Origin: a virus
Virus record (IMG/VR): IMGVR_UViG_3300027793_000063
Location: 62,001-126,000 of that record
Length of the DNA stretch: 64,000 nucleotides
Reading direction: 5' to 3' (one strand)
Notes under the pieces: generated by a model
Seen by the model: only the letters and a program-made list of their open reading frames with translations
Told to the model about the DNA's origin: nothing
Databases searched by the model: none
Shown here: in pieces, positions 4,451 to 58,258 of the stretch
Numbering within the stretch: the first letter of the stretch is position 1
Layout: each line of letters begins with the position of its first letter
Translations under genes and position numbers: made by a program

Positions 4451-4455
4451 AAATG

Positions 4456-5319
4456 TTACAGATAGTCGGTGATTAAAACTTGTCCCAGAATATTGCGGCG
4501 CGGACCGGCGTCGTAGCCGTGTCCCAGCGCGCCGCCCAATATACCACCCGCGATCATGGGTAGCAAGCCTTTGGAACCCAGAAAGCGCACCGCGAGGGCG
4601 CCGATGCCCGCACCAGTCGCAGTGCGTAGCAGGCGATAGAGATCCTCCTGATCAGAAGATCTGGCACTTGCGAGGGCGCGCAAGATCAGCGCGCGCTGTC
4701 CGGAGTTGATCGACGGATCGCTGTTCAACAGTTGAATGACGAGGGGCAGCCAGTCCGTCGCTGCCTGCTTTGAAAGCCACGCCTCGCGGCGGTTGTGCTT
4801 GCTCTGCGCCCATGCAGTGCCGGCCGCGCCAACACCGCCGGCAAGCAGCGCAGCCAGGAGCGCGCGCTTGATCGGACTCCCGCCCTCCCGCCTACTGGGT
4901 CCCCACAGATAACCACCCACTCCGCCGGCCAACGCCGACAGCAGCCCGGCCGTGCCGACGGCCTTGCCCTGCGACGAACCCCCCCAGTCGAGCGCTTTGC
5001 CGATGCCGCTGGCAATCGAATCGTTCCACTGTCGCGCGGGGGTTTTCGGAATGCGCTGCAGCGGCGCATACCCGTTGTTGGCCGCTTCTTGCAGATGCAT
5101 CATCCGGTAGGCCGGATCGAAACTCAGCTTGTACTCGTCGGGAGTCATATACACCCGGGAGTCGTCCGGTGAGAGCCCAATGGAAGCCTTCGGATGTTGG
5201 AACGAAATTTTACCGTCAGGTTCGTTCCGAAAATCCCACACCTCGCCCTGTAGGTGGTGCGGAATGGACTTCGGAACCGCGCCGTGCGGCGTGAGCGGAT
5301 TGGTGATCTCCTCGGTCAT
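4456..5319 (-). CDS. glycine-zipper membrane-type protein
   Basis: 287 residues. Three Gly/Ala-rich segments are clear: about residues 120-138 (GLLSALAGGVGGYLW), 150-172 (LLAALLAGGVGAAGTAW) and 238-272 (IAGGILGGALGHGYDAG). The N-terminal 100 residues are soluble and Tyr/Pro-rich. The start codon overlaps the stop of the upstream small gene (ATGA). Short zipper helices like these are known in phage internal proteins that form membrane channels; its place just after the portal supports a virion role. Exact function is inferred only. Confidence 0.6.
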   Translation of the reverse strand: MTEEITNPLTPHGAVPKSIPHHLQGEVWDFRNEPDGKISFQHPKASIGLSPDDSRVYMTPDEYKLSFDPAYRMMHLQEAANNGYAPLQRIPKTPARQWNDSIASGIGKALDWGGSSQGKAVGTAGLLSALAGGVGGYLWGPSRREGGSPIKRALLAALLAGGVGAAGTAWAQSKHNRREAWLSKQAATDWLPLVIQLLNSDPSINSGQRALILRALASARSSDQEDLYRLLRTATGAGIGALAVRFLGSKGLLPMIAGGILGGALGHGYDAGPRRNILGQVLITDYL

Positions 5320-5555
5320 CGTAGTCCTCCGCTTCCGTTCCCGACGTGCGGGGAGTTCTGTCCTGGATACTTTGCCACCCAGTTCTCCGAGTCAAACCGG
5401 TCCGCTGCGTCTGTCGCACTTCCACGCGGAGTCGCCGCGTGATCGTGGTCGAAACTCAGTTCGCCTTCCGTCAACTTCTTGGACGCGGCTGCGGCAACTT
5501 CCTGCACCGCCGCCTCGCGGAGTTTTCGTGGGTATTGGGATTTCTGGTGAGACAT
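5316..5555 (-). CDS. small charged hypothetical protein
   Basis: 79 residues, rich in Lys, His and Ala, with no hydrophobic core (HQKSQYPRKLREAAVQEV at the start). It fills the gap between the portal (stop 5574) and the next gene and shares an ATGA overlap with it, which supports real translation. Not recognised. Confidence 0.5.
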   Translation of the reverse strand: MSHQKSQYPRKLREAAVQEVAAAASKKLTEGELSFDHDHAATPRGSATDAADRFDSENWVAKYPGQNSPHVGNGSGGLR

Positions 5556-28390: not shown

Positions 28391-30112
28391 TCACGGTACG
28401 ATGTTCGGCGGTTCGGCGTCAGCATTGCCCTCGCGGATGCTGCGGTAATACCGCATAACGTGCGGGTCCACCTTCGCCACGAAGTCGTCCTCGGCGAGTA
28501 TCAAACCCTCCGGCGACCGCAAGCGGGACAGTCCCACGTAAACGTGTCCGGATGCAAACGTGCGGGAAAGCGCCAGGATCGCGCTGTCCATCGAAAGGCC
28601 TTGCGATTTGTGGATTGTGATCGAGGTAGCCGGGATGAGCGGGAACTGCCGTGCCGTCGGATACAGGCTAATCTCCGGCGGCAGCTTCGGGTTGTCGGGG
28701 TTCGCATACCATTCAGGCGGGACAACAACTGATTCCTTCGGGTCCTGCTCGCGCGTCCGTGTGTAGCGGTGACGATATAGCGTCACAAGCCGTTCCTCGT
28801 CCTCCGGTTTGCGGCCTGGGACGCCGATGACTACATTGTCCGCGTCGTAACTCCCTTCGCTGCGCTGAAAGATGTTGATCTCGCGTACAAAGCCGCGTGT
28901 GCCATTCACGAATCTGCCGTCGGGGTCGTTGACTGTGAACATTACAGGATACCCGACGCGCACAAACGTCCGCTTGTCCAGCAGGCGTCGCTGCAACGCT
29001 TTAGTCAATTCATCCTTCACGCCTTCGATGTTCTTGGTCTCCCAGTCCTTCATCTGTTGCACCCCGGGCACGATGCAGAACTCTGCGTCGAGTGGTTGCG
29101 TGGGGGCCGGATAGTGTTCCAGCGCCTGCGCGTTGATCGCTTTCGCCTGTTTGTTGGTCGGCACCAGAAACGTGTAGAACCGCGTCTCCTCCAGCGTCAT
29201 GCCCTTGCGTACAAACCTTCGCGCGTATTCCCGGTCGTCCTGCGTCGTGATACCCACGCGAATGTTATTAAGGAACCCGACAAACCGATGGTCGCCCTGC
29301 CGAAACACCTTCGTCAGCTCAATCGGCTTTACACGTGCGTCGTCCCATGCGCGCGCCAGGAATGCCCAGTCGGGACGATCGTCGTTCATGCCCTCCTCGA
29401 CCGGAGGCAACTGCGCGAAGTCGCCGATGAATACCATCTGCAGCCCGCCGAACGGCTGCTCGTTGCCGCGGATACGCTTCAGCATGAAGTCCAGGTAGCC
29501 GAGCATGGCAGCGCCGGAGAGCATGGAGACTTCGTCGAGCAGCAGCACCTCGTGAGCGCGCAGCCGCGCCAGCACGCCGTGGCGCATGAACGGCTTGATC
29601 TTCGGATCAGTCATCCAGCGCTCGTAGAACATCTCATACCACGCGTCCAACTCCTCCTTGCTCATGTCCGCCGCCCGCGGCACATCGGCGCCTGGCCGCA
29701 CGTCCGCCAGGAACTCGCACATTTTCTTCGGGTAGCACGGCGGCCAGTCCGGCCCCAGGCCAATCCCAAAGAACGAGTGCATGGTCTTGCCGTCCAGATG
29801 GCTGCCGGCGATGCCGGTCGTAGCTGTGACTGACCAATGCATGTTGCGATAATCCAGCTCAGGCATCACCACAGCCTTCACGAACGTCGTCTTGCCGACG
29901 CCAGCACCTCCGGTGATCAGAACGTGCCGGTGCTCGGTGAAGATGGACACGAGAGCATCCAGATGTTCTTCCGTGCCCTCGAACCCCGGAGTGTTCTTCT
30001 CGTAGTATTTCAACCGGGCTGCGAGTTCGGCGCGCTCGACGCGTTTGCGACGATTCGGCGCCTCGGCGAACGGGTCTTCCGCCGTCTGTTTCAGGAATAC
30101 GTTCAGGTCCAT
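28391..30112 (-). CDS. Pif1/Dda-like superfamily 1B helicase
   Basis: 573 residues with a clear SD (AAGGAGG) nine bases before the ATG. Walker A GGAGVGKT at 68-75, then TATTGIAG, Walker B LLLDEVSML, QMVFIGDFAQLPPV (motif III), and the C-terminal motif HKSQGLSMDSAI followed by YVGLSRLRSPEGL. These are the diagnostic blocks of the Pif1/RecD2/Dda group, which moves 5'-3' on single-stranded DNA. In T4, Dda supports replication start and recombination. It lies 1 bp before the MazG-like gene's stop side in one operon. Confidence 0.92.
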   Translation of the reverse strand: MDLNVFLKQTAEDPFAEAPNRRKRVERAELAARLKYYEKNTPGFEGTEEHLDALVSIFTEHRHVLITGGAGVGKTTFVKAVVMPELDYRNMHWSVTATTGIAGSHLDGKTMHSFFGIGLGPDWPPCYPKKMCEFLADVRPGADVPRAADMSKEELDAWYEMFYERWMTDPKIKPFMRHGVLARLRAHEVLLLDEVSMLSGAAMLGYLDFMLKRIRGNEQPFGGLQMVFIGDFAQLPPVEEGMNDDRPDWAFLARAWDDARVKPIELTKVFRQGDHRFVGFLNNIRVGITTQDDREYARRFVRKGMTLEETRFYTFLVPTNKQAKAINAQALEHYPAPTQPLDAEFCIVPGVQQMKDWETKNIEGVKDELTKALQRRLLDKRTFVRVGYPVMFTVNDPDGRFVNGTRGFVREINIFQRSEGSYDADNVVIGVPGRKPEDEERLVTLYRHRYTRTREQDPKESVVVPPEWYANPDNPKLPPEISLYPTARQFPLIPATSITIHKSQGLSMDSAILALSRTFASGHVYVGLSRLRSPEGLILAEDDFVAKVDPHVMRYYRSIREGNADAEPPNIVP

Positions 30113-47339: not shown

Positions 47340-47701
47340 GGTAGTTTGTTCCCTTCGGTTGCAGCAGCCGACGCGCCGCTTCCGGCATCGCGGCTGACTT
47401 CTGCGATATGCGGCTGATCCAGTTCAGGATCGTCCACGGCGGGCGACTCCATCATCGCCACCACTTCTTTCAGGAACGCCAGCAGTTCGCCCGGAGTCTC
47501 TAGTGGGCTGGACGTTGATACTCCGAGCAGCAGCCTGCCGCTCACTCGCATTTCCACGCGCCGCATATCCAGGGCATGGAGCGAAGCGGCTTCCTGTGTG
47601 TCGTTTTCGGTTTCAGTTTTCATAAAGTTAGTGCTGCGATTCACGGTCTCGCCGCGCGCGACCAGGAACGCCGTCGCCAGATTTGGAATCTCCGTGTCCA
47701 T
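47336..47701 (-). CDS. hypothetical protein
   Basis: 121 residues from the ATG at 47701 (a GTG at 47704 is also possible). The start overlaps the SbcC-like stop codon. Mixed sequence with a Glu/Ser/Ala-rich tail. Not recognised. Confidence 0.55.
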   Translation of the reverse strand: MDTEIPNLATAFLVARGETVNRSTNFMKTETENDTQEAASLHALDMRRVEMRVSGRLLLGVSTSSPLETPGELLAFLKEVVAMMESPAVDDPELDQPHIAEVSRDAGSGASAAATEGNKLP

Positions 47702-50223
47702 CACGCAGGAAGCTCAATCCGGTCGCTGAACGCCTCGATGAGCGTCGGGGAGTGGTCGCAGACGATCATCTGCAGCGTGCCCTCTTCGCCGATCTTCCGG
47801 AGCATGTCCGCCATAGCGCGTTTGGCTTCTTCGTCCAGATGCGTGGTCGGCTCGTCCAGCGACAGGAGTCCCACGTTTGGCATGATCATCGCGTGCAGCG
47901 CGCGCAGCGTAGCCACGGCCAGGCGCACCTTCTGACCGCCTGACATGCGGCTTTGCGGCATCCAGGCCTCGTCCGCGCGGTCGGTGCGGAGGAAGTCATA
48001 GGACAGCGGCAGATCCTCGCTCGCCGAGACCATGAAGTCTGCGCCGCTCTCCGCCAGATAATCCCCGGCCAGTTGTGCGATCTGCCCGAACTTGTAGTTC
48101 AGGAATTCGAGGCTGGCGCCGTTCGGTCGGAACGTGTCGCGCAGCATCTCCAGATCCTTGGCGAGCGCCAGGCGCGTCTTCTGTTCCGCGGTCCGAAGGT
48201 CGAGCTCGTCGATCTTGCGGCTCGCCGCCTTCATCGACTCGTTGGCGGCGTCATGCCGTCCGCGGGCCTCGTCGAGGGTCTGCTGCGCCTTCTCGAGTTC
48301 GGTCAGTTTGCTCTGCACCATCTGCTGCGTCAGCACCGGGGCACCGTCGCTCGGGAAGAATCCCAGCGGCACATCAGCAAGCAATTTGCGCAGGCTGTCG
48401 TGCGCGGCTTCCATGCTGCGCTGCGCGGCGTCGACTTCCGCGATCTGCTTCTGTACAGTCTCCACTGCGTCGCTGGTGCTCTTGGCTTCCTCGGCGGCGT
48501 CGTGAAGCATTGCACCATCGATCAGCGCGCGCCACGGCGCGTCTTTCAGCGCTTGCGCCTGGCTCGCCTCTTGCGCGACCAGATTGTCGATCTCGTGCTG
48601 CGTCGGCTCCGTCTTGCCTTTGACAGCGACCCTGTAGCGGTCCACGACCTGCGTGAGACGCGCGTGCTCGTGCGCCTTGGCGTGCCACGCCTGCAGCTTT
48701 GCCGTCGCTTCATTCAGCCCCTGCTGTGTCGTCTCCCTGGTAGTCAGCGACGTTTCAATCTGCAGCCGCCTCTGGTCGTTCAGGTGCTTTGCCAGCGCGT
48801 CAGCCAGCGTCGCGTGCGCGCGTTGCAACGCGCCCGCATCCTTCTGCTTGGCGCGAAGAGCGTCGCCGCTGACCACCCCCTTGTCCTCGGCCTTTTTCAA
48901 CTGCCCCTCGAGGTCTGTGATTTCCTTGCGCAGATGCTCTGGGTCAGGAGGCGTCGTGCCGCCACAAAGCGGACAGTGATCCGAGTGTCCCCCGCCGACT
49001 TCGAGTCCACGCAGAAGATCACGCCGCATCTGCAGAGCATTGCGAATCAGAACGTATGACTCCCGGTTGGCGTCATACGCAGTCTGCAAGGCCGCGACGA
49101 CTTCTGTGCCCGCGGTCACCTTCTCCTCTGCCTCTCTCTCGCTCGCAGTCGCGCCGGGGATGGATGTCGTCAGCGTGTCCAGGTCGTCGAACTTCTTCAG
49201 CATCGCCTCGGCGCGTTTGACGGACGACTCGGGACTGTCGCCCAGCTCTCCGGCCTCTTTCAGCTTCGCTTCCGCGTCTGCGAGTTCCGCGAACTGTTGC
49301 TTGAGCCCGCGCGCGCTGAGCAGAGCCAGGTCCGTCTTGGACTGGTCTGCGCTGGCTTGCAGATTCGCCTGCTTGCGCTGCGTCAAACTGGTCAGCTTCT
49401 TCTGCCACTCTTGTTGCTGCTGGCGCGCGTTGACGAGCCACAGGGCAGCGTCCTCGCCCGCTGGGACGTGCTGCTGCAGCTGCGTCTTGGCCGCTGTCGC
49501 GGCATCCTCCGCTGCCGCAACCGCGCTGTATTGGGACGAAACATTGCGGACCAGCGCCAGATACTCGGCAGGCGAAGGCAACCCTTTCATCTCCGACTCG
49601 CATGTCTCGAAGAAACGGCGGGCCTCTTCGTAGGACGCCTGGGCGGCGTCGCGCACTGCGCCGAGATCCTGCACGCTGCTCGCGACGGTTTCCCGATGCG
49701 TCTCGATCACGTTGGCAATCTTCGCGAGGTGCCCCAACATGAGCAGTTTGGTGTAGAACTCCCGGCGGTCAGTCTCGAGCCCGAACATGCTGGCCATCTC
49801 GCCCTGCCGGATGAACACCGTGGAGTTGATGGCCTTTTTGTCGACGCCGAGGATGTCTAACATGATGCTGCTGACCTCTGCGTCGGACGTGATGGGCTTC
49901 TCGGCCCCGTCCCACCACAGCTTCCTGGTCACTGTCGTGCGCGTGATGCGCCGCTGGATCTTGCCGACCTTGCCGTCCGCCACGAACTCCAGCGTCACCT
50001 CGGCCGCGGCCGGCGGATTTTCGCCGCTCGACCGGCGGATGAATGCGCGCAGTGGGTCCGGGTGGTCGATGGTGCCGGTGAGTCCGAACTGAATGGCCTG
50101 CAGCACAGTCGATTTGCCGCGCCCGTTGGGGCCAGCCAAGCCGACGACGCAGCCCTGCAGTTTGCTTTTGATCGAGTGATGCCGACCGAAGTCGGTGATT
50201 TCGATGGATGTGATTTTGATCAT
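47701..50223 (-). CDS. sbcC: SbcC/Rad50-like SMC-type ATPase
   Basis: 840 residues from the ATG at 50223. Walker A GPNGRGKS at 31-38, long charged coiled coils on both sides of a zinc hook CPLCGG near residue 418, then signature MSGGQKVRLAVATLRAL and Walker B LSLDEPTTHLDEE. This is the standard SbcC/Rad50 layout; the T4 equivalent is gp46. With the SbcD-like nuclease at 50804 it resects DNA ends for recombination and replication. The HNH-like gene lies between the two. Confidence 0.93.
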   Translation of the reverse strand: MIKITSIEITDFGRHHSIKSKLQGCVVGLAGPNGRGKSTVLQAIQFGLTGTIDHPDPLRAFIRRSSGENPPAAAEVTLEFVADGKVGKIQRRITRTTVTRKLWWDGAEKPITSDAEVSSIMLDILGVDKKAINSTVFIRQGEMASMFGLETDRREFYTKLLMLGHLAKIANVIETHRETVASSVQDLGAVRDAAQASYEEARRFFETCESEMKGLPSPAEYLALVRNVSSQYSAVAAAEDAATAAKTQLQQHVPAGEDAALWLVNARQQQQEWQKKLTSLTQRKQANLQASADQSKTDLALLSARGLKQQFAELADAEAKLKEAGELGDSPESSVKRAEAMLKKFDDLDTLTTSIPGATASEREAEEKVTAGTEVVAALQTAYDANRESYVLIRNALQMRRDLLRGLEVGGGHSDHCPLCGGTTPPDPEHLRKEITDLEGQLKKAEDKGVVSGDALRAKQKDAGALQRAHATLADALAKHLNDQRRLQIETSLTTRETTQQGLNEATAKLQAWHAKAHEHARLTQVVDRYRVAVKGKTEPTQHEIDNLVAQEASQAQALKDAPWRALIDGAMLHDAAEEAKSTSDAVETVQKQIAEVDAAQRSMEAAHDSLRKLLADVPLGFFPSDGAPVLTQQMVQSKLTELEKAQQTLDEARGRHDAANESMKAASRKIDELDLRTAEQKTRLALAKDLEMLRDTFRPNGASLEFLNYKFGQIAQLAGDYLAESGADFMVSASEDLPLSYDFLRTDRADEAWMPQSRMSGGQKVRLAVATLRALHAMIMPNVGLLSLDEPTTHLDEEAKRAMADMLRKIGEEGTLQMIVCDHSPTLIEAFSDRIELPA

Positions 50224-50236
50224 GTAATGAGTGTGG

Positions 50237-50797
50237 CTAGAATGGACAGTTTGGGTCGTCCGGGATGGTGTATTCGCCGCTGTCCTCTTCATCTAAGACG
50301 TCGGACTCCTCTCGGTTGTCCATCGCCAGGTATTTCGCATTCCTCTCCTGGATGTCGTCGCGTTTGCGTTCCAGCATGTGCTGCACGTGCTCTGGCAGGT
50401 AGCGCTCCTGATGCGATTTCCATGCGTTCAGCTCCACCGTCACCACGCGCATGTTGCCCTCCTCGTAGCCGAGCGTCGGATTCACGCGGTCGATCGTCAG
50501 CACCGAATCGTCGCCCTCCTTTTTGGAATACAGACCGAAGGCGTCCACCAACCCTCGCCAGTAGTCCAGCGTGATCCTGAACGGTATTTTCCGCTCGGCC
50601 GCGTGGTCACGCAGCGTGCAGTAGTCCGCGGTTTTCTTCTGCTGCGCGCGCCAACGCCGCATCTCGTGCATGTGACACAGACACCGATCGTCCCGCGACG
50701 CGCGCCGGCAGCCTTTTACCCAGCACAGTCCGTCGCCGGAATTCCCCTTGAACTCGAAGAATCCTTCGGCAAGCAGAGCTGCGCTGGGTTTCGGCAT
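50237..50797 (-). CDS. HNH-like endonuclease
   Basis: 186 residues. Cys/His-rich N-terminal part (CWVKGCRRASRDDRCLCHMH), then a helix, then LTIDRVNPTLGYEEGNMRVV, which matches the C-terminal part of HNH nucleases of phages (TIDRIDPxxGYxxxNxR). It sits between sbcC and sbcD, a place where mobile nucleases often insert, but could also be a host-directed enzyme. The classical HNH His is not certain. Confidence 0.65.
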   Translation of the reverse strand: MPKPSAALLAEGFFEFKGNSGDGLCWVKGCRRASRDDRCLCHMHEMRRWRAQQKKTADYCTLRDHAAERKIPFRITLDYWRGLVDAFGLYSKKEGDDSVLTIDRVNPTLGYEEGNMRVVTVELNAWKSHQERYLPEHVQHMLERKRDDIQERNAKYLAMDNREESDVLDEEDSGEYTIPDDPNCPF

Positions 50798-50803
50798 GTC
50801 AGC

Positions 50804-52012
50804 CTATTCTTCATTTTCCCTGACGGCTGCTGCGACCAGGCGAGCCTCGATCAGCTCTGCCACGATATTGCTAGCGTCGCTCTCGCCGCGGTGCAGGAGA
50901 TCCAGCGCCGTCTTCTGCAGGTCTTCCCGGTCCTTGAATCGCTGACTCACGAAGTATTCCATCGTGAACTCCTTCTCGGAGTCCGGTGAATCTTTGACTC
51001 TCGCCGGATGCGCCTGCGTGTTGGGCAGCGGGTAGCACCGTATGACCGCGCGCTGGGCGTCCAGCATCGAGTGCAGCCGGTTGATCGTCTGCGGAAACTG
51101 CCGGTCGAACTGCACGACCGCCACAGGATGCTGCGCGGCCACCGGCTCGATACGCAGCATGAGCGCGTCGAGGTCATCGGCGGTGCGCACCTCCGCGTTG
51201 ATGAACGGACGTGTGTGAATCGGAATCGTCTCCTTCAGGATAGCGCCCTCGGCAGTCAGCCGGATGATCGGCACAGACTTGCCGATCGGCTCGCCAGCGT
51301 TGCACATCTCGGTCGACCCCGGGTAACCAATCAGGCACTTGCCTCCGCCGGGACGGTCCAGCTGCTGGAACCCCTGCAGGTGGATGTCGCCGAGCAGCCA
51401 GGCCTTGTTGTGCTTCGAGATCGGCAGCTCGGACACGTGCAGCGGGTCCGGTGTGTGTATCGGGAACTTCACCACACCGTCGATGAGTCCGTGGAACAGC
51501 ACGACGTCTGCCTGCCGCACCCGCACGGTGATGTTCGCCAAGTCGCCGCGGAAGCTGGCTGCGGTGTGCGGCGTGAGCCCCACGATGCGATAGCCACGGA
51601 AGACGACGCTGGAGTCGTCCAACGGCACGATGCCTGTCTCACCTTCAAATAGCGTCTCGGTGTCGTCGTCCGTCAGATTTAACGTGCGCCCCGGAAACAG
51701 CGTCTGCAGCCACGTGGGCGTGCTCCAGTCGTGGTTGCCGGTGATGGTGAATGCCACCTTCCCGGCGCTCCGGATCATCTGGTCGATGTGCATCAGCTGT
51801 CCGATCACCTGCGGGCTCGGCCGAGGGCGGTCGAAGATGTCGCCGGTGATGCAGATGATGTCCGCGTGCTTCAGCGCCGTCTCGACTGCATTACGGAAGC
51901 CGTCGTAGAAGTCCTGGCCCCGACGGGCAGCCGCGTATTGTGAGTCTCGCAGGTGGGTGTCACCGATAAGTGCGATCAGAAGATCGCTGTTTGGGGTCGC
52001 ATTTTTTGCCAT
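50804..52012 (-). CDS. sbcD: SbcD/Mre11-like nuclease
   Basis: 402 residues. Metallophosphoesterase motifs in order: GDTH at 17-20, GDIFD near 57, GNHD near 92, later VLFHGLIDG and GDIHLQGF, which supply the metal-binding residues. This is the nuclease partner of the SbcC-like protein (T4 gp47). The start overlaps the upstream RNase H gene by 37 bp in another frame. No SD. Confidence 0.9.
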   Translation of the reverse strand: MAKNATPNSDLLIALIGDTHLRDSQYAAARRGQDFYDGFRNAVETALKHADIICITGDIFDRPRPSPQVIGQLMHIDQMIRSAGKVAFTITGNHDWSTPTWLQTLFPGRTLNLTDDDTETLFEGETGIVPLDDSSVVFRGYRIVGLTPHTAASFRGDLANITVRVRQADVVLFHGLIDGVVKFPIHTPDPLHVSELPISKHNKAWLLGDIHLQGFQQLDRPGGGKCLIGYPGSTEMCNAGEPIGKSVPIIRLTAEGAILKETIPIHTRPFINAEVRTADDLDALMLRIEPVAAQHPVAVVQFDRQFPQTINRLHSMLDAQRAVIRCYPLPNTQAHPARVKDSPDSEKEFTMEYFVSQRFKDREDLQKTALDLLHRGESDASNIVAELIEARLVAAAVRENEE

Positions 52013-52743
52013 TTTTCAGTAGGGTAAATTTTGGAAGCCGCTTCAGCCAATTCTTCGCGAGCCCCCTTGAGGAGAGCGCGCGCCGCGCCTGCGAGTGCAT
52101 CACAAATCGCCTGCCCGTCCACGACATTACGCGGGCGGCACATGGGCGTGATGCAAACGTGCTTGGCCATGAACGACCAACGCATCCACAGATCACGCTC
52201 CTTCAGCCGGGACATCAGCGGGTCGCCATCCTCGTTGTAGAGGAACGCGTGGGCGAGACTGCTGCGATCGGTGTACCAGAGAATCGAGACCCGGTCAGGT
52301 CCCGTGAATTGGTTCAGGATTCCCTCAGTGCCGATCTTGTAAAGCTCCGCGGAGTCAGTCGTCTGCTCCTGAAGCTCCCGCCCGCGCTCTGTCAGGATGG
52401 AGTGCACGCCATCCAGCAGGGCGCTGAACTCCGATCGGCTGACCGTGGACCCATAGGTGCCAGCGACGTAGCAGCCGCGCGACACCGGCGCCCTGATCTC
52501 GCCGATCAGATCGATACGCTCCCAGACGGCCGCGTAGCCGCCCCATCCATCGGCGCAGCCGGAGCCGTCGGTGTAGAGGACGCAGTCGTGCTCGTAAGGA
52601 TCCGGGGCGACCTCTTCGAGCCACTCGAACACGTCGGCGTAGCGCTCCTTGATCAGCTCACCGTCGACGGTCAGGTTATCCCACCAGGACGTCTCTTTTC
52701 GCCACTTGTGTTTGTTCCAGGTGTCACGGTTGTGGTGAGTCAT
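51976..52743 (-). CDS. ribonuclease H-like protein
   Basis: 255 residues. RNase HI pattern: VLYTDGSGCADGWGGYAAVW (first Asp), SRSEFSALLDG (Glu), ILWYTDRSSLAHAF (second Asp) and a final Asp region near CRPRNVVDGQA. RNase H removes RNA primers of Okazaki fragments; a phage copy beside the resection genes fits lagging-strand processing. Overlaps the next gene upstream by 20 bp and the SbcD gene by 37 bp. Confidence 0.8.
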   Translation of the reverse strand: MTHHNRDTWNKHKWRKETSWWDNLTVDGELIKERYADVFEWLEEVAPDPYEHDCVLYTDGSGCADGWGGYAAVWERIDLIGEIRAPVSRGCYVAGTYGSTVSRSEFSALLDGVHSILTERGRELQEQTTDSAELYKIGTEGILNQFTGPDRVSILWYTDRSSLAHAFLYNEDGDPLMSRLKERDLWMRWSFMAKHVCITPMCRPRNVVDGQAICDALAGAARALLKGAREELAEAASKIYPTEKWQKMRPQTAIF

Positions 52744-53332
52744 CGTCGTCCGCTTCTGGAGTCCTCACGCTTCCGGCCGTCTCCTTTTCGTGCTGCTGCG
52801 CCACGTCCAGAACGCTGCCGTTCGCGTCCTCTCCTTGTGGTAATTTCGGCGCGGCGGGTGCGGTGGTCTCGACCGCCGTGATCAGGCGCCGGCTGGCAAT
52901 TCGCTTCAGAGAGCCGACGTTCTGATGTTCCGCTTCTTCCATGAACGCAGCGATGAGAGGGCCGGCCATCTTGTCCGCCACCTCCTGCTGAATCTGCGCT
53001 TGAGCATGCGGTCGCATCTTGTCGCTCAGCATACCGGGCATGGATGATGTGCCAGTGACCTGCGTGAACGGCTGGTCGGCCCCGCGCACAATGCGGATGT
53101 CCCAGTAGATGCGGATGTCGCTGTCGTTGACCCCGACGACGCCCGAGTGGAAATCGATCAGCGGACGTTCGCGGTCCAGCAGCCTGGCGTTGAGTTCGTT
53201 GGCCTCCTGGATGACCTTGATCGCGCTCTGCAGCGCGGCCAAGGCATCGACGGACGGCGCGTCAGGCGTTGAATTTCGCCCGGATTTCTTCTGCTTCGCT
53301 TTCGACTGGTTCGGTGGGTGGTGATTGCTCAT
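52724..53332 (-). CDS. hypothetical protein with acidic tail
   Basis: 202 residues from the ATG at 53332. N-terminal basic part (KAKQKKSGRNS), a helical middle, and an acidic C terminus (EADDDDSPQP). Overlaps its upstream neighbour by 71 bp. Possibly a nucleic-acid or nuclease accessory factor. Not recognised. Confidence 0.55.
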   Translation of the reverse strand: MSNHHPPNQSKAKQKKSGRNSTPDAPSVDALAALQSAIKVIQEANELNARLLDRERPLIDFHSGVVGVNDSDIRIYWDIRIVRGADQPFTQVTGTSSMPGMLSDKMRPHAQAQIQQEVADKMAGPLIAAFMEEAEHQNVGSLKRIASRRLITAVETTAPAAPKLPQGEDANGSVLDVAQQHEKETAGSVRTPEADDDDSPQP

Positions 53333-53456
53333 TTTGAATATCGCGTAGTTTCTCGCCTTGCTCACGCGTCCAGATCAAATAGAGTGACGTGCGTGCCTTT
53401 CCGAACCTGTCCGCACGTTCGTTTTCCAACAACACCGTCGATTTTGATTGAGCCAT
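53262..53456 (-). CDS. small protein divergent from TerL
   Basis: 64 residues. Helical and charged (AQSKSTVLLENERADRF). The ATG lies on the opposite strand over the TerL ATG: the two share CATG at 53454-53457, leaving no promoter space between them. Overlaps the next gene by 71 bp. Not recognised. Confidence 0.5.
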   Translation of the reverse strand: MAQSKSTVLLENERADRFGKARTSLYLIWTREQGEKLRDIQNEQSPPTEPVESEAEEIRAKFNA

Positions 53457-53889
53457 GTTAGCGCAAGGTGAATTTATTTATGATTTGATGAACGCCTTGA
53501 GGAGAGACCCTCAGCGGGCGGCAAAGGTGTCCGCCGCTCTGCAGCGCATGGACACGGTAACGGCGGCCGTGGCGGATGGCAAGGCCACACGCAGCGACAT
53601 CGCCAAGATCGAGGCTGAGATCGTCCCGCTGTGCGGTTTCAACTTCGGCCTTCTCATTCCTCGATTCTTCCCGCGTTACCCATTCGAGAAGCCGCTCGAC
53701 CTGAGCGCGCGCCCGTTCATGTATGCCATGACCGCGCTGGCGCCGGGCAGCGTCGTCACCCTAAAGGCTGGACGTCAGGTCGGGAAATGCGCCGACGGCG
53801 ACACCACGGTCGTCACCGACCGCGGCGTCGCCACGTTGTGCGACATCTTCGCGGAGGGGATTCCAGTTCAGGCCAGCAGCGTGCGGTAG
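53455..53889 (+). CDS. terL: TerL N-terminal fragment with split intein N part
   Basis: 144 residues. Residues 1-111 are the N-extein of the large terminase subunit, ending in Walker A VTLKAGRQVGK. Residue 112 is Cys of the intein: CADGDTTVVTDRG begins block A. The fragment stops after 33 intein residues (IntN). The C-terminal fragment (55035-56915) starts on its own, and its extein begins STGLGAAELF, completing GRQVGK-ST of the P-loop. TerL powers DNA packaging and cuts the genome. A short IntN with a long IntC is the layout of atypical split inteins such as AceL-TerL. Confidence 0.88.
   Translation: MLAQGEFIYDLMNALRRDPQRAAKVSAALQRMDTVTAAVADGKATRSDIAKIEAEIVPLCGFNFGLLIPRFFPRYPFEKPLDLSARPFMYAMTALAPGSVVTLKAGRQVGKCADGDTTVVTDRGVATLCDIFAEGIPVQASSVR
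53788..53886 (+). other. split intein N fragment (IntN)
   Basis: 33 residues, Cys1 to the stop at 53887. CADGDTTVV is the block A start. The last 8 or so residues overlap, in antisense, the end of the gene at 53868. Confidence 0.85.
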
Positions 53890-54830
53890 CTGCGAATGGC
53901 TTCTGCTCCGTGGATCTCGACGTATGACGGGTCGAACACTTCCGCCTCCGCAGGCGTGTAGATCAGACCGTCCTTCAGCTTGTCGATCAGGTGCTGCGAG
54001 AACCGGTAGCGGACGCCGGGCGAAGCGAGCATCCATTTCGACTGCAGCGTGAGGATCATCTCCCCGGACATCCCGGCTGCGAATCCGCAGTCCCGCAGCA
54101 GATCGGTGATGTAGTTTTCCCGGATGCGTGCGAAACGATCCGCCAGCGTCTCGAAGTGGTGTCTGGCGCTCAGCGGCCAGCTTTTCTTCAACCACTTGTG
54201 GCGCTCGAGGTAGATGTCCTGCATGCTCGACGACAGGGCACTCACGTCGGCGTAGATGCAGGACACTCCGCAGGTCCACATCTTGTGCTCGCCGATGTAG
54301 AACTGATCAAGGTCCGCCTTGCCCGATTCCATGATCATGCGGCGGCAGAGCATGCCGAAGTTGGAATGATCCGCGGCGCTGGCTCCGGCGTGATCCTCCG
54401 CGCACGCCAGCAGCGACAGCTGCGGTTGACGCAGCGCGGTCCGCATCTGCTGCAGCAGGATGCTACGGTCAATCTGCAGCGCCGTTGCGTCCGGGCCCGT
54501 ATATGGGTATGCCGGCTTCGGCAACTTCTTGATCAGCTTTCCGGCTGCGTCATACATCTCGACGATCCGCTCGTCGCGACGCAGGAAGAACGCATCGCTC
54601 TCGTCTCTCCTCGCAGCCTTGCGCATCCATATTTCGGCGTCTTCGACGTCGATTCGGTAGATGGTGATGTCCGGCCTGCCCGGGTCGTTGCTGGCGGCCT
54701 GGACGCTGACGAGTCCTGCGAGGAACGGGGATGGACGCGGAGTCCATTGCTGCTTTTTTGGTAGTTTCTGAGTGGTGTTCAAATGGTTGAGTTGTGGACG
54801 ACCATACAGCGTGGAGACGGCGGACGACAA
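53868..54830 (-). CDS. unrecognised protein encoded inside split TerL locus
   Basis: Up to 320 residues; the first start codon is TTG at 54830, and a later TTG after an A/C-rich leader is possible, so the start is uncertain. Composition: helix-rich with Arg/Asp (EIWMRKAARRDESDAFFLRRD), two CRR/CG-like Cys, and a C-terminal part with FDPSYVEIHGAEAIRSY. No homing-endonuclease motif (LAGLIDADG, GIY-YIG, HNH, vsr-like) was seen, unlike known inserts between split intein halves. It runs against the TerL fragments and overlaps IntN by 22 bp. Function unknown. Confidence 0.6.
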   Translation of the reverse strand: MSSAVSTLYGRPQLNHLNTTQKLPKKQQWTPRPSPFLAGLVSVQAASNDPGRPDITIYRIDVEDAEIWMRKAARRDESDAFFLRRDERIVEMYDAAGKLIKKLPKPAYPYTGPDATALQIDRSILLQQMRTALRQPQLSLLACAEDHAGASAADHSNFGMLCRRMIMESGKADLDQFYIGEHKMWTCGVSCIYADVSALSSSMQDIYLERHKWLKKSWPLSARHHFETLADRFARIRENYITDLLRDCGFAAGMSGEMILTLQSKWMLASPGVRYRFSQHLIDKLKDGLIYTPAEAEVFDPSYVEIHGAEAIRSYRTLLA

Positions 54831-54958
54831 GTCCGTGGATGTCTTCGCTGCCCCTTCGTCCGTAATGGGGAATAATGCGCGCGGTCGTTCCGTGCCGACC
54901 GTGTTCCTGCGCCTGTTCAGGTGAGCCCCCGCCGCTTGCGCTTGCGGGGATCTTCATC

Positions 54959-54986
54959 TTGACGCTATTTGCGGTGCGCCTACGAT
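54959..54986 (+). promoter_or_regulatory. promoter candidate for TerL C fragment
   Basis: TTGACG (54959-54964), 16-base spacer, TACGAT (54981-54986), start expected near 54,993. A GTG with SD GAGGAAAG follows at 55035. It would express the C half independently of the N half. Confidence 0.45.
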
Positions 54987-55034
54987 GCCAAACATCGCGT
55001 GCTGTTGGAAACCGAAATAGCTGAGGAAAGATCC

Positions 55035-55355
55035 GTGGAGCATCTCGACTTAAAAGTCGCTGCTCCGGGTGGTGCTTTTGTGCGTGTCACCCACGTCTGC
55101 CGAACCGTGCCGATGCCGGTGTGGCGAATCCTGACGCGAGATTTCGCGTTGGAGTGCGCCGGCAAGCATTTGGTAAGGAGACTCAGTGGATATGGGCAGG
55201 TGGATCAATGCCTGCCCGGTGACTTCATACTGACTCAAGACGGCTGGCAGCCCGTCACTGCATGTGCGCCGGTGGGTGAGGAACGCGAGATGTTCGACCT
55301 CCGTGTGGAGGGCGAGGATCACGCATACTTCACCTCCGGGATTGCCAGCCACAAT
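55035..55355 (+). other. split intein C fragment (IntC)
   Basis: 107 residues ending in SHN, with Ser at 55356. The block B-like stretch near residue 44 has a His (ECAGKH) but Cys in place of the usual Thr. IntC is close to the 104 residues of AceL-TerL IntC. Confidence 0.85.
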
Positions 55356-56915
55356 TCCACGGGCCTCGGGGCCGCTGAGCTGTTCAAGCTCAGCGTGGTT
55401 CCAAATTACCGCTCCATCTACCTGACCCCGCTGAGGGAGCAGAGCAAGACGATGGCGGACAAGCTGCTCAACATGCAGCGCGGCTCGATCTGTCCCCCGG
55501 CGTATTTCACCTCCCGCGGCTACCGCAACAACATGTATTACAAGGAGTCTCCACAGGGAGGCTCGCTGAAGCTGATGCACATCCTGACGGACCCGACAAA
55601 GATCCGCGGCGAAAGCGTGCCCACCATCATCATCGATGAGAGCCAGGATTTCGACGCCGAGCATCTGCCGGAAATCGAGCAGGTTCAAAAAGCCTTTCCC
55701 GACGATCGTCTGACCGTGTTCGCCGGCACGTCAAAGACTCTCGATACCTGCCTGGAGGCTCAATACAACCTGGGCAGTCGCGGCGTGTGGCACGTGTATT
55801 GTCCGTGTCCGAAGAAGTTCCACTCGCTTGGCGACGCAGAGCTCGTGCCGAAAATGATGGTCTCCGTGGAAGGCCTGCGCTGCCCGGACAACAAGCACAT
55901 CAAGCTCAACCCCCTGATGGGGGAGTTCGTCCACGAAGACCGGTCTCGGCTGCGCGTCAACATGCCCAGCTTCCATCTGCCGCAGGTGATCGTGCCGGAG
56001 TATGCCCTCGGAAAGGGCTTCATGGACATCTGGAAGGACTACAAAAAGTATCCTCTCAAGAAGTTCCTGCAGGAGGTCTGGGGTATCGCAGTCGAGTCCG
56101 GGCTGACCGAACTCAACGAGGAAGATTTGAAGCGGTGCTGCACCACCAAGACGTTCGCGCAGACGCAGGAGGACTGCCTCGCCGGACGTTCGCGCTACAT
56201 GTATCTGTTCTCCGGCGTGGACTGGGGCGGCTCGGACTGGGAGCCGGCGTATCGCAGCAAACTCTCCTACACGGTGCATACGATTTACGGGATGCGCGGC
56301 GACGGGAAGATGGACCTGGTCTACGCCTTCCGCTACTCCGGCATGAACTACCGCGAGATCGCACAGAACATCGTCGAGCAGCACAACAAGTACAAGAGCT
56401 TCGCGATGGGCACCGACAACGGCGGCGGCGCTTACTACAACGCCTACATGCGGGACTGCGGACGCATCCGGACGGAATCGATCATTCACTTTCAGTATAC
56501 CGACACCAAGCTGATGCTGGACCGCATCAAGCACCCGGAGGCGCACATCATGTCGCTGCACCGGTCGGACTCCCTCTCGGCTCTGCTTGCCGACATCAAG
56601 GACCAGAACATCTCATGGCCACGCTGGGACGAGTCCAGCCCGTTCGTGTTGGACTGCCTGAACATCCGGAGAAACATAGCCGAAGCGCCGTCCGGTCGCA
56701 CCATCATGCGCTACATCAAGGCCGGCGCGCGGTCGGACGACTTCCTGCAGTCTACCAACTACGCGTGCATGATGAAGCGCATCGTGCGCAACGAATCGCT
56801 CATCCCGAACAAGCAGATCATGGACGAGCTGCGGACGCTGTTCGGTCTGTCCATCCCGAACGATCTGGCGTCGCGGATGGGCGACATGTTCGAGGGCGGC
56901 TACGTCGGCGGGTAA
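55035..56915 (+). CDS. terL: TerL C-terminal fragment with split intein C part
   Basis: 626 residues from a GTG at 55035 with GAGGAAAG seven bases upstream; an in-frame TTG at 54969 is an alternative. Residues 1-107 are IntC, ending YFTSGIASHN with the penultimate His and terminal Asn, followed by Ser+1. The C-extein (519 residues) begins STGLGAAELFKLSVV, has Walker B TIIIDESQDFD, and then an RNase H-fold nuclease domain with FSGVDWGG and FAMGTDNGGG. Mature TerL would be about 630 residues. Two separately expressed proteins must splice to make an active packaging motor. Confidence 0.9.
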   Translation: MEHLDLKVAAPGGAFVRVTHVCRTVPMPVWRILTRDFALECAGKHLVRRLSGYGQVDQCLPGDFILTQDGWQPVTACAPVGEEREMFDLRVEGEDHAYFTSGIASHNSTGLGAAELFKLSVVPNYRSIYLTPLREQSKTMADKLLNMQRGSICPPAYFTSRGYRNNMYYKESPQGGSLKLMHILTDPTKIRGESVPTIIIDESQDFDAEHLPEIEQVQKAFPDDRLTVFAGTSKTLDTCLEAQYNLGSRGVWHVYCPCPKKFHSLGDAELVPKMMVSVEGLRCPDNKHIKLNPLMGEFVHEDRSRLRVNMPSFHLPQVIVPEYALGKGFMDIWKDYKKYPLKKFLQEVWGIAVESGLTELNEEDLKRCCTTKTFAQTQEDCLAGRSRYMYLFSGVDWGGSDWEPAYRSKLSYTVHTIYGMRGDGKMDLVYAFRYSGMNYREIAQNIVEQHNKYKSFAMGTDNGGGAYYNAYMRDCGRIRTESIIHFQYTDTKLMLDRIKHPEAHIMSLHRSDSLSALLADIKDQNISWPRWDESSPFVLDCLNIRRNIAEAPSGRTIMRYIKAGARSDDFLQSTNYACMMKRIVRNESLIPNKQIMDELRTLFGLSIPNDLASRMGDMFEGGYVGG

Positions 56916-56937
56916 TTTCTGTGCTACGTAAAGAAGA

Positions 56938-56971
56938 CGCCAGCGCGGCCCCCGAAGGAGCCGCGCTGGCG
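56938..56971 (-). terminator. hairpin with TCTTCTTTACG tail
   Basis: 12-bp stem CGCCAGCGCGGC/GCCGCGCTGGCG (56938-56949 with 56960-56971). On the minus strand TCTTCTTTACG follows. It may terminate minus-strand transcripts from P1 and lies just beyond the TerL stop at 56915. Confidence 0.75.
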
Positions 56972-57159
56972 CTGACAGGTGCGAGTGACTATTGTTTCGG
57001 GCGGGTATTCGTATGCCGTCACTCACGGCTGCAGTTGCCCTAGCCGTCACCGACCCTTTCAGGTCACGGCGTTTCGAAAGTGCTGCAGCGCATGGTATCC
57101 CACCATGTTGACTTCTGTGCAGTCTTGCTACACATGGCCACGTCCTTGTAAATCTTACT

Positions 57160-57303
57160 TCACCAAGCTGCGTGGCGCTGTGAAGTCCATTCCGCTAATC
57201 TTCGTCGGTCCATGGTAGACGTACGGAGATACTGGTTTCGTTCGCGCACGAAGCCAGCAAAGAGCACATACGCAGCCCCCAGACGAATCTGGTAAGTGTG
57301 CAT
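57160..57303 (-). CDS. 47-residue protein, near-leaderless
   Basis: From the ATG at 57303, 9 bases after the -10 box of promoter P1, leaving a leader of about two bases. The sequence has a hydrophobic N-terminal helix (IRLGAAYVLFAGFV) and a basic C-terminal part (TMDRRRLAEWTSQRHAA). Between its stop and the hairpin at 56,938 lie about 190 bases without a clear gene but with local hairpin potential. Function unknown. Confidence 0.6.
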   Translation of the reverse strand: MHTYQIRLGAAYVLFAGFVRERNQYLRTSTMDRRRLAEWTSQRHAAW

Positions 57304-57306
57304 ATG

Positions 57307-57342
57307 CAAAGTATTATGACGCAGAACGGTCTGGAATTGCAC
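57307..57342 (-). promoter_or_regulatory. promoter P1
   Basis: Minus strand: GTGCAATT, then 16 bases ending TGCGT, then CATAATACTTTGC-ATATG. -10 at 57313-57318. The block has the same 24-base spacing as P2, P3 and P4. Confidence 0.8.
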
Positions 57343-57364
57343 GGGGTCCGGGGAGGTAAAGGAA

Positions 57365-57401
57365 GTGCCGCCGCGGCCCCGTGAGGGGGCCGCGGCGGCA
57401 C
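57365..57401 (-). terminator. 16-bp perfect hairpin with TTCCTTTACCT tail
   Basis: GTGCCGCCGCGGCCCC/GGGGCCGCGGCGGCAC (57365-57380 with 57386-57401), 5-base loop. Ends the gene at 57408-57773. Strongest of the six shared-tail hairpins. Confidence 0.85.
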
Positions 57402-57407
57402 GTTGCG

Positions 57408-57773
57408 TTACATGACTGGATCGGCACCCCTCAGCAGGGTGCCGGTTTTGCTCAGGCGCTCGATGAGCTCCTGCAGGCGGGCGAACACGCCCGCCACGAA
57501 CGGGATCTCGTAGTCGACGTCCTCCGGCCCGCTGAGGACCGCCGGCAGCCACCCGCCGTCCTCTGGCTCGGTCGGCTTCGCGGCCGCCTCGAGCCAGAGG
57601 ACGTCCGCGAGGTTCTTCGGAGTGAACCCCGCGAGGAGTTCCTTCCGATGTTTTTCCAGCGCAGCGATGACGGACCAGCCCTTGCGGGCGGCGTCGTCGC
57701 TGGCCATGGTTCCGAGCTGGCGGACCAGCTCACATAGTTCAGCCGCTTTTGGCGGCATGGTGTTGGTGCTCAT
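57408..57773 (-). CDS. 121-residue protein, leaderless
   Basis: From the ATG at 57773, seven bases after the P2 -10 box, so the transcript starts at or next to the AUG. Helical, charged, with KAAELCELVRQLGTMASDD and FARLQELIERLSKTGT; a Glu/Pro-rich central linker. It has its own promoter and terminator. Not recognised; short monocistronic genes like this often act early against the host. Confidence 0.65.
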   Translation of the reverse strand: MSTNTMPPKAAELCELVRQLGTMASDDAARKGWSVIAALEKHRKELLAGFTPKNLADVLWLEAAAKPTEPEDGGWLPAVLSGPEDVDYEIPFVAGVFARLQELIERLSKTGTLLRGADPVM

Positions 57774-57776
57774 ACA

Positions 57777-57810
57777 AAGTCTTATGACACCGCGCGGTCT
57801 CGAATTGCGG
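57777..57810 (-). promoter_or_regulatory. promoter P2
   Basis: Minus strand: GCAATT, 17 bases, TCATAAGACTTTGT-ATG. -10 at 57781-57786 is CATAAG. Spacing to the -35 element equals that of P1, P3 and P4. Confidence 0.75.
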
Positions 57811-57830
57811 CAGGTAAAGAAGACGAGCCA

Positions 57831-57855
57831 GCGCGGCCCCTTCACGGGGCCGCGC
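57831..57855 (-). terminator. 10-bp hairpin with TCTTCTTTACCT tail
   Basis: GCGCGGCCCC/GGGGCCGCGC (57831-57840 with 57846-57855). Same tail as the others. It ends the second structured RNA below. Confidence 0.8.
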
Positions 57856-57856
57856 G

Positions 57857-57968
57857 CAGAAGAATGGGAACCCGACAGCGCAGGATTTGTCCTGCTTGCA
57901 ATCATCCGCTGAACGCGCTGATATGCCGTCGTCACAGCCGTCGCGCCCTGGGCGCCGTCGGGTTCCAC
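57857..57968 (-). ncRNA. possible second structured RNA
   Basis: A closing helix GGAACCCGAC/GTCGGGTTCC (57867-57876 with 57957-57966) encloses about 80 bases with hairpins GCAGGA-TTTG-TCCTGC and GCGCC-CTG-GGCGC. No coding frame of note. It may be the 3' part of the unit starting at P3, or a separate product; it ends at the hairpin at 57831. Confidence 0.45.
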
Positions 57969-57976
57969 GTTTGTCT

Positions 57977-58258
57977 AAAAAATGAACCGGACGAGGACCT
58001 CAGCCCCCGCCCGGTGTATCGAGGCGATACGGTATCGCAGCACGACGCTGCGATTGATGAACACCAACCGCTCGAAGAGGCGCAGGACTCGCCTGCGGCT
58101 TTTCGAGCGGGGCGCGAAACGAAAAAGAACGGACACCGTATCCGTCAGCCAGCGGCGCATCTGTTGCTGTAGATGATCCCGCGCATGACGCAGGATGAAC
58201 TTCACAACAGATGCGCGGGCTGACGCGGCGCGAGTGTATCAGACGGCGAACACCACTC
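57977..58258 (-). ncRNA. highly structured non-coding RNA from promoter P3
   Basis: P3 is followed by no ATG at the leaderless position. The 282 bases hold at least five strong hairpins: GTCAGCC and GCGCATCTGTTG pairing with CAACAGATGCGC and GGCTGAC (58144-58224); CCGCTCGAA/TTCGAGCGG with an inner CGCAGG/CCTGCG (58068-58110); ATCGCAGC/GCTGCGAT (58034-58054); GTATCG/CGATAC (58016-58030). An 11-bp GU-tolerant terminator stem (57986-57996 with 58005-58015) and six T (57977-57982) end it. A 76-codon frame ends inside this terminator and is considered spurious. Confidence 0.7.
57986..58015 (-). terminator. intrinsic terminator with T6
   Basis: Stem ACCGGACGAGG with CCCCGCCCGGT in plus sense (57986-57996 with 58005-58015), then TCATTTTTTAG on the minus strand. 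Ends the structured RNA. Confidence 0.85.

What the first reader, a model, noticed from the sequence alone, without database searches (positions are those of the whole stretch)
53455..56915. Naturally split TerL intein interrupted by an antisense gene
The N half of TerL ends at Walker A GRQVGK then intein Cys; the C half starts with IntC ending SHN then Ser, restoring GKST. IntN is 33 residues and IntC about 107, as in the atypical AceL-TerL type. Between the halves lies a gene of unknown function on the opposite strand with no endonuclease motif. Splicing in trans would be needed for the packaging ATPase itself.
Basis: partly seen in the sequence, partly recalled or inferred. Interest (0 to 1): 0.92.

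Follow-up and report, generated by a model that had tools for sequence, protein, structure and literature searches.

The report
Split packaging-motor intein around reversed gene
In this large phage the DNA-packaging motor gene is broken in two by a split self-splicing protein segment, and the gap, where related phages usually carry a homing endonuclease gene, holds an unrelated gene facing the other way.

Summary
TerL is encoded as two + strand ORFs. Joined at Walker A (GRQVGK^STG), they align through the junction with an intein-free TerL. A profile of contiguous TerL inteins finds the C part at E = 5e-16, the only significant hit in the window. IntN has 33 residues. IntC has 107 from GTG 55035, more likely 119 from GTG 54999. 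The layout recurs in three phage lineages, the window's own included, so it is no assembly error.

The class is known: AceL-, GOS- and Cat-TerL are atypical split inteins. New is the gap. Of 31 other gapped split loci classed (from the best 80 of 277 relatives), 29 carry an EDxHD/Vsr-like endonuclease on the same strand, one a PHROG-called homing endonuclease on the same strand, one a borderline same-strand hit. Only this group (6 loci) has a whole gene on the minus strand, though one other gap holds a minus-strand endonuclease scrap. The gene is under purifying selection, is unlike those endonucleases and has no family or fold match. A conserved hairpin and a weak promoter-like element precede the C half. 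Splicing is untested.

The parts
53455..53787 (+). TerL N-extein, 111 codons, ends at Walker A GRQVGK
   Evidence: residues 79-111 align with residues 19-50 of the intein-free TerL of Salmonella phage Arash (E = 0.001 alone)
53788..53886 (+). IntN, 33 residues (core C112-V138 = 53788-53868, tail QASSVR in the overlap with the antisense gene); stop 53887-53889
   Evidence: Cys1 and C..GDT block at the same place in the three lineages; no hit of its own in the profile search
53868..54830 (-). antisense gene of unknown family, 320 aa from TTG 54830 or 304 aa from TTG 54782; its 3' end overlaps the N-half ORF by 22 nt
   Evidence: homologues at 51% and 32% identity in the same place; dN/dS 0.24 to 0.44
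54927..54949 (+). hairpin; the stem is kept in three lineages, one pair as C-G, A-U and U-A
   Evidence: (z -2.1, -3.0, -2.2); 7 of 8 pairs never vary, 88 of 500 shuffles do as well, and the terminator scan does not list it: suggestive only
54959..54986 (+). promoter-like TTGACG-16-TACGAT (17-nt spacer in the other two lineages)
   Evidence: searches (1 such site in 52700-58000, shuffles mean 1.2; 63 of 1000 shuffles of the window's stretch score as high), 115: weak
54999..55355 (+). IntC, 119 residues from GTG 54999 (107 from GTG 55035), ends SHN
   Evidence: (profile of 6 contiguous inteins, E = 5.4e-16)
55356..56915 (+). TerL C-extein, 519 residues, begins STGLG (rest of Walker A), with stop
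   Evidence: (phrog_675, E = 1.3e-11)

Best explanation
TerL is made as two proteins from two genes. IntN (27-33 residues) on the first and IntC (107-119 residues) on the second fold together into one HINT domain and splice in trans, joining GRQVGK to STG and so restoring Walker A and a TerL of 630 residues. The layout derives from the common 'fractured gene' cassette, IntN - homing endonuclease - IntC, all on one strand and often overlapping end to end. In this phage group the endonuclease slot is now held by an unrelated gene in reverse orientation. That breaks the co-directional row, so the C half is probably transcribed on its own, from just behind the hairpin, and translated from GTG 54999. 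Shown by sequence: the two halves, the junction, the intein homology, conservation in three lineages, coding constraint on the reversed gene, the contrast with related loci. Inferred: that splicing happens, that the endonuclease was replaced, that the C half has its own promoter. What the reversed gene does is unknown; I think a passenger or regulatory gene somewhat more likely than a nuclease.
For: Joined exteins align with an intein-free TerL without a gap at the junction. Cis-intein profile E = 5.4e-16. Cys1, SHN and Ser+1 kept in all three lineages. IntC dN/dS 0.21 against L006. One TerL C part in each of the 6 records searched with the group's own alignment. 29 of 31 other gapped split loci have an endonuclease-profile hit on the same strand (12 of the 29 are in the model, 17 are not); L111 has a PHROG homing endonuclease on the same strand. 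6 of 6 loci of this group carry the minus-strand gene (the profile was built from this group). Hairpin, TTGACG and GTG start at matching places in three lineages.
Against: No splicing, expression or protein data exist here. IntN alone has no profile hit. No group member without the gene, and none with the endonuclease, was found, so replacement is inferred from outgroups. The promoter-like element is weak, and the hairpin has one covarying pair. The search would miss a distant second TerL.
Confidence: 0.8

Rival explanations
1. The reversed gene is a homing endonuclease of an unknown family, working from the opposite strand and moving the split-intein cassette.
For: It sits in the slot that relatives give to a homing endonuclease, in a gap of the same size (1036-1074 nt; 23 of 31 other gapped loci have 930-1293 nt). 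It evolves faster than TerL (dN 0.41 against 0.145, window against L006).
Against: No endonuclease family, profile or fold match. Three lineages are too few to compare trees of cassette and phage; not tried.
Confidence: 0.3
2. The reversed gene is the old EDxHD endonuclease, inverted in place and diverged beyond recognition.
For: Same slot, similar size. A precedent for reversal: in L111 a 24-residue piece resembling the C-terminal end of these endonucleases (31.3 bits, E = 6.6e-8) lies on the minus strand at 3056-3127, with its 3' end next to the IntN stop (3038), as in this group.
Against: Profile-profile probability 0.2%; the endonuclease profile finds nothing in the gaps of the three lineages in six frames (best E = 3.1), while in 27 loci outside the model it hits the + strand in 21 (five had no hit, L111 only the minus scrap).
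Confidence: 0.08
3. TerL works as two unspliced proteins; the intein is a relic.
For: No direct proof of splicing.
Against: The break lies inside Walker A, the intein ends are intact, and IntC is under purifying selection.
Confidence: 0.04
4. Assembly or binning error, or a dying gene.
For: The records of this group are IMG/VR contigs named after metagenomes or of unknown source; none is an isolate that I know of.
Against: Same layout in the window and 6 other contigs, three lineages, with overlaps of 22, 20 and 41 nt at the same end.
Confidence: 0.01
5. The gap is removed from RNA by a group I or II intron.
For: Phage TerL genes can carry introns (recalled).
Against: No Rfam match at gathering score in the window; the halves carry intein ends, which RNA splicing would not need.
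Confidence: 0.01

Closest known systems
AceL-TerL, GOS-TerL, Cat-TerL atypical split inteins (PMC11766414, passages seen)
   Same: TerL-type host, short IntN (25, 37, 30 residues), long IntC (104, 115, 104 residues)
   Different: Here Cys1/Ser+1 rather than Cys1/Cys+1 or Ser1/Cys+1; their sequences were not fetched, so not compared directly. Cat-TerL is a designed consensus.
Fractured genes with split inteins and EDxHD/Vsr-like homing endonucleases (Dassa et al. 2009, doi 10.1093/nar/gkp095; not held; seen only as cited)
   Same: Split intein halves flanking an ORF of about 1 kb
   Different: In the related loci classed here the ORF is an endonuclease on the same strand; here an unrelated gene on the other strand
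Split PolB intein of Pseudomonas phage MIJ3 with an HNH endonuclease gene between the halves (PMC6892783, passages seen)
   Same: Phage gene in two pieces with a gene between
   Different: Other host gene, known endonuclease family
Contiguous TerL inteins of Ackermannviridae and of Vibrio phage VPALA
   Same: Same insertion point in Walker A, homologous HINT domain (159-179 residues in the 6 used)
   Different: Contiguous, no gap
Delftia phage PhiW-14 TerL
   Same: Split at the same site, IntN 43 residues, IntC on the next ORF
   Different: Short gap, no gene between
VidaL intein, PDB 6vgv
   Same: IntC alignment over residues 52-132
   Different: E = 0.036, so only weak by sequence; that it is a split intein is recalled

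Membership tests
Atypical split TerL intein | Split inside TerL with nucleophile at residue 1, terminal HN and C/S/T at +1 | tested here: met
   K|C112 ... SHN|S in the window, L006 and L007
Atypical split TerL intein | IntN of about 25-37 residues and IntC of about 104-115 | tested here: met
   33 (core 27) and 107; or 119 from the likelier start, just above the range; yardsticks from PMC11766414
Atypical split TerL intein | HINT homology | tested here: met
   cis-intein profile E = 5.4e-16 on IntC; IntN alone gives no hit
Atypical split TerL intein | Splicing in trans | not testable with these tools
   needs expression
Fractured-gene cassette with homing endonuclease | EDxHD/Vsr-like endonuclease gene between the halves | tested here: not met
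   endonuclease profile best E = 3.1 in the gap of three lineages, six frames; hhalign 0.2%
Fractured-gene cassette with homing endonuclease | Intervening gene on the same strand | tested here: not met
   minus strand in 6 of 6 group loci; plus strand in 29 of the 31 other gapped split loci by profile, in L111 by PHROGs, borderline plus in L053 (E = 0.0011)
Homing endonuclease of another family | Known nuclease domain in the reversed gene | tested here: inconclusive
   no match in Pfam, NCBIfam, PHROGs, PDB sequences or fold searches of two models; model confidence moderate (pLDDT 71.6 and 69.0)

The most novel reading that the evidence does not exclude
The reversed gene is a new kind of partner for a split intein: either a homing endonuclease of an undescribed family or a regulator of TerL joining. 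By facing the other way it forces separate transcription of the two TerL halves, so that assembly of the packaging motor depends on two transcripts meeting late in infection.
Probability: 0.3. Interest if true: 0.75.

Novelty: new variant of a known kind. Interest (0 to 1): 0.5.

Why it matters
It suggests that the endonuclease slot of a fractured gene can be taken by an unrelated gene in reverse while the split intein stays under selection, so that the split outlives its presumed maker. It breaks the co-directional layout that the halves share in relatives and predicts separate expression of the two halves of an essential motor protein, which can be tested. If they splice, these Cys1/Ser+1 split inteins could also serve as tools.

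Tried and rejected
Antisense protein: Pfam, NCBIfam, PHROGs (best E 0.049, chance level), PDB sequences (none at E <= 10), phage records by tblastn (no match in 50,697 records at E <= 1), genome contigs by pattern (62 stretches, none confirmed; a pattern scan misses distant relatives), viral contigs three times (only this group). Two AlphaFold2 models (pLDDT 71.6 and 69.0, 4 sequences each): Foldseek gave nothing at E <= 0.001 (best 0.15, 0.088 and 0.30). VIA-align gave best Z 4.9 (4ney, 69 residues, 3.2 A) and 4.1 (6o80, an eIF4E, 105 residues, 4.2 A). eIF4E rows recur for both models but lie in the noise range, so no fold is claimed; the C-terminal helical part was barely tested.

RNA elements: no Rfam match at gathering score in the window, no tRNA. 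Promoter: sites scoring as high turn up in 63, 436 and 488 of 1000 shuffles of the 200-nt stretches of the three lineages, and in 52700-58000 one site was found against a shuffled mean of 1.2. In L007 another site ties with TTGACG-17-TACGAG. What is shared is TTGACG at -76, -72 and -72; it occurs anywhere in 45, 61 and 25 of 1000 shuffles. Hairpin: 88 of 500 shuffles do as well, and the terminator scan does not list it.

TerL: family phrog_675 searched in six records found only one of them, so the group's own alignment A2 was used. Relatives of TerL in genome contigs by pattern: 148 stretches, none confirmed. Inverted repeat 53418-53435 with 54999-55016: not better than other pairs listed, dropped.

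Count limits: one search found 277 relatives and kept the best 80; only these 80 were classed, by a rough script: gapped split 37 (29 endonuclease +, 2 without profile hit at E <= 0.001, 6 this group), split without ORF between 6 (1 endonuclease +), contiguous by rule 13 (2 endonuclease +), IntN not recognised 10 (3 endonuclease +), upstream DNA too short 14 (12 endonuclease +). The endonuclease profile was built from 12 of the 29; 17 were outside it. Rows are not deduplicated: L080/L083/L084/L085, L089-L091 and L102/L104/L109 look like copies. L061 was called contiguous on a doubtful match; L051 has an IntN by the looser rule but not by that. Against my reading: in L046 and L047 the largest ORF just before IntC (276 and 264 aa) is on the minus strand, but no IntN was found there, and in the record of L047 one lies about 15 kb away, so they were not counted as gapped; in L111 a minus-strand endonuclease scrap lies in the gap. 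Not all 80 have a TerL extein. Of 256 phage records, ten regions were fetched.
Full report
What is there. The window is G000:C1:62001-126000 of a viral record of 126,971 bases. On the + strand, 53455-53889 encodes 144 residues ending ...GRQVGK|CADGDTTVVTDRGVATLCDIFAEGIPVQASSVR, and a frame open from 54963 to 56915 encodes ...GIASHN|STGLGAAELFK.... On the - strand, 53868-54830 is an ORF of 320 residues.

It is TerL, broken inside Walker A. The C part matches terminase large subunit families (phrog_675, E = 1.3e-11). Joined exteins (630 residues) align with the intein-free TerL of Salmonella phage Arash through the junction: GRQVGK-STGLG against GRQIGK-SVSLG, E = 4e-28. The N part alone ends at Arash residue 50 (E = 0.001) and the C part alone begins at 51. 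Each of six records searched with the TerL C alignment of this group has one such part; a distant second TerL would be missed.

It is an intein. A profile of six contiguous TerL inteins, five from Ackermannviridae and one from Vibrio phage VPALA (159-179 residues, same insertion point), finds the C-half ORF at E = 5.4e-16, up to the final SHN. The next hit in six frames of the window has E = 4.2, and 20 shuffled sets reach only 5.9 bits against 55.5. IntN gives no hit alone; it rests on Cys1, the C..GDT block and its position. The intein VidaL is the best PDB sequence match, weakly (E = 0.036).

Sizes. IntN has 33 residues, of which 27 are shared by the three lineages. For IntC two starts compete. 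GTG 55035 follows GAGGAAAG and gives 107 residues. But the 12 codons before it are conserved as protein (VLLETEIAEERS / VLLENEIAEERS / VLKESEIAEERS): against L007, 7 synonymous and 2 non-synonymous codon changes in frame, 0 and 8 or 0 and 9 in the other frames; against L006, 2 and 1 in frame, 1 and 2 or 0 and 3 in the others. GTG 54999, present in all three lineages, is therefore the likelier start and gives 119 residues. Reported values for AceL-TerL, GOS-TerL and Cat-TerL are 25/104, 37/115 and 30/104 (PMC11766414, passages seen).

It is conserved. Six other IMG/VR contigs have the same layout. With the window they make three lineages: three contigs near-identical to the window, L006 (TerL C part 79%, antisense protein 51%) and L007/L008 (65% and 32%). 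The antisense frame is under purifying selection: window against L009 dN 0.011, dS 0.046; against L006 0.41 and 1.15; against L007 0.79 and 1.80, where dS is near saturation. IntC is tighter (0.22 and 1.03 against L006), the TerL C part tighter still (0.145 and 1.05). The 3' ends of the antisense gene and the N half overlap by 22, 20 and 41 nt in the three lineages.

The comparison that decides novelty. Scanning viral contigs with an IntC alignment gave 277 relatives; the best 80 were kept and classed by script. Of 37 split loci with a gap, 6 (this group) have the antisense gene on the other strand, and 29 have an endonuclease-profile hit on the same strand; 12 of these 29 are in the model and 17 are not. 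Two have no hit at E <= 0.001: L111, whose gap ORF PHROGs calls a homing endonuclease on the same strand (E = 2.6e-100), and L053, with a 395-nt gap and borderline same-strand hits (E = 0.0011 and 0.0027). L111 also has, on the minus strand beside IntN, a 24-residue piece like the C-terminal end of these endonucleases (E = 6.6e-8). So an endonuclease of this family seems to have once lain reversed in that gap, in the same geometry as here.

Ten intervening ORFs were run against Pfam and PHROGs, nine from gapped loci and L051. Nuclease families of the Vsr-like kind (MTES_1575, DUF559, once Vsr) match 7 of 10 at E <= 0.1, 3 of them above the curated cut-off of DUF559. PHROGs at E <= 0.001 gives endonuclease families for 5 of 10 and phrog_22677 of unknown function for 7 of 10. 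A motif of the form IE[FY]xGxxxH is on the + strand in 19 of 31. The name EDxHD/Vsr-like for these ORFs rests on this, on PMC12350094 (passages seen) and on recall of Dassa et al. 2009, which is not held. In several of those loci (for example L057, L058, L064, L074, L080, L117) the endonuclease ORF overlaps the IntN ORF at its start and the IntC frame at its end, so all three could sit on one transcript and be translated in a row. In this group they cannot.

The reversed gene. No relative outside the group was found in viral contigs, phage records or, by pattern, genome contigs, nor in six frames of the loci L045 and up. It has no family match and no resemblance to the endonucleases by profile (best E = 3.1 in the gaps; hhalign probability 0.2%). 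Two models of moderate confidence gave no fold match. Its function is open.

Expression. Just upstream of IntC lie a hairpin kept in three lineages (8 pairs, one seen as C-G, A-U and U-A) and TTGACG-16/17-TACGnn ending 12, 7 and 7 nt before GTG 54999 or its counterpart. This fits a terminator or attenuator followed by a promoter and a nearly leaderless start. But by score the promoter is weak, the hairpin is not in the terminator list, and the covariation rests on three sequences. I treat it as a lead.

Mechanism. Both halves are made, IntN and IntC fold together, and splicing joins K111 to the following Ser. Without it the packaging ATPase has no Walker A. The likely history is a contiguous intein, split by an endonuclease gene as in relatives, then the slot taken by the present gene. 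The last step is inferred from outgroups only.

Literature. Nine searches on split inteins with terminase, opposite strand, antisense, fractured genes, Ackermannviridae and PhiW-14 listed no paper that I recognised as describing a reversed gene between split-intein halves. I saw listings, and passages of five papers (PMC8228797, PMC6892783, PMC11766414, PMC12350094, PMC3229294). The library holds only open-licence papers, and the two papers most likely to bear on this (Dassa 2009; Thiel 2014, recalled) were not read.

Noticed in passing
L015 (Delftia phage PhiW-14, NC_013697.1), about 4401-5321: TerL is split at the same site without a gene between the halves; the N half with a 43-residue IntN is not annotated in the record shown.
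   Followed up: partly
L111 3038-3127: A 24-residue scrap resembling the C-terminal end of the gap endonucleases lies on the minus strand next to the IntN stop, beside a plus-strand homing endonuclease of another PHROG family: a possible trace of a reversed or replaced endonuclease.
   Followed up: partly
L047 (G007) and L120; L068 (G009), L119 and L122: In two records of about 306 kb no IntN was recognised within about 4.7 kb before IntC; an IntN-bearing TerL N part lies about 15 kb away in G007 and candidate N pieces about 14 kb away in G009.
   Followed up: partly
L046/L047 4896-5648; L052 4911-6350: The ORF with IntC and part of the host protein ends in what looks like a second IntN, so the protein may be in three pieces.
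   Followed up: no
L053, L074, L096, L100, L106: Inteins of this family sit after GK of Walker A in proteins whose flanks do not look like TerL to me, so the family seems to favour the Walker A motif of several P-loop proteins.
   Followed up: no
L017 (LR756500.1): An IntC of this type, preceded by an endonuclease-like frame, sits before a P-loop protein that looks like PhoH (name recalled).
   Followed up: no
L020 (Vibrio phage VP-1) 4470-7812: TerL is interrupted after DQEYDC by a stretch encoding a GIY-YIG-like protein (motif recalled), with a second terminase-like CDS annotated behind it: perhaps a group I intron.
   Followed up: no
53454-53457: The start codons of TerL-N (+) and of a divergent small ORF (53262-53456, -) overlap, so any leader of either lies inside the other gene; a similar small ORF sits beside TerL-N in L007.
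   Followed up: partly
47701-52012 and 28391-30112: The phage carries SbcC-like, SbcD-like and Dda-like helicase genes.
   Followed up: no
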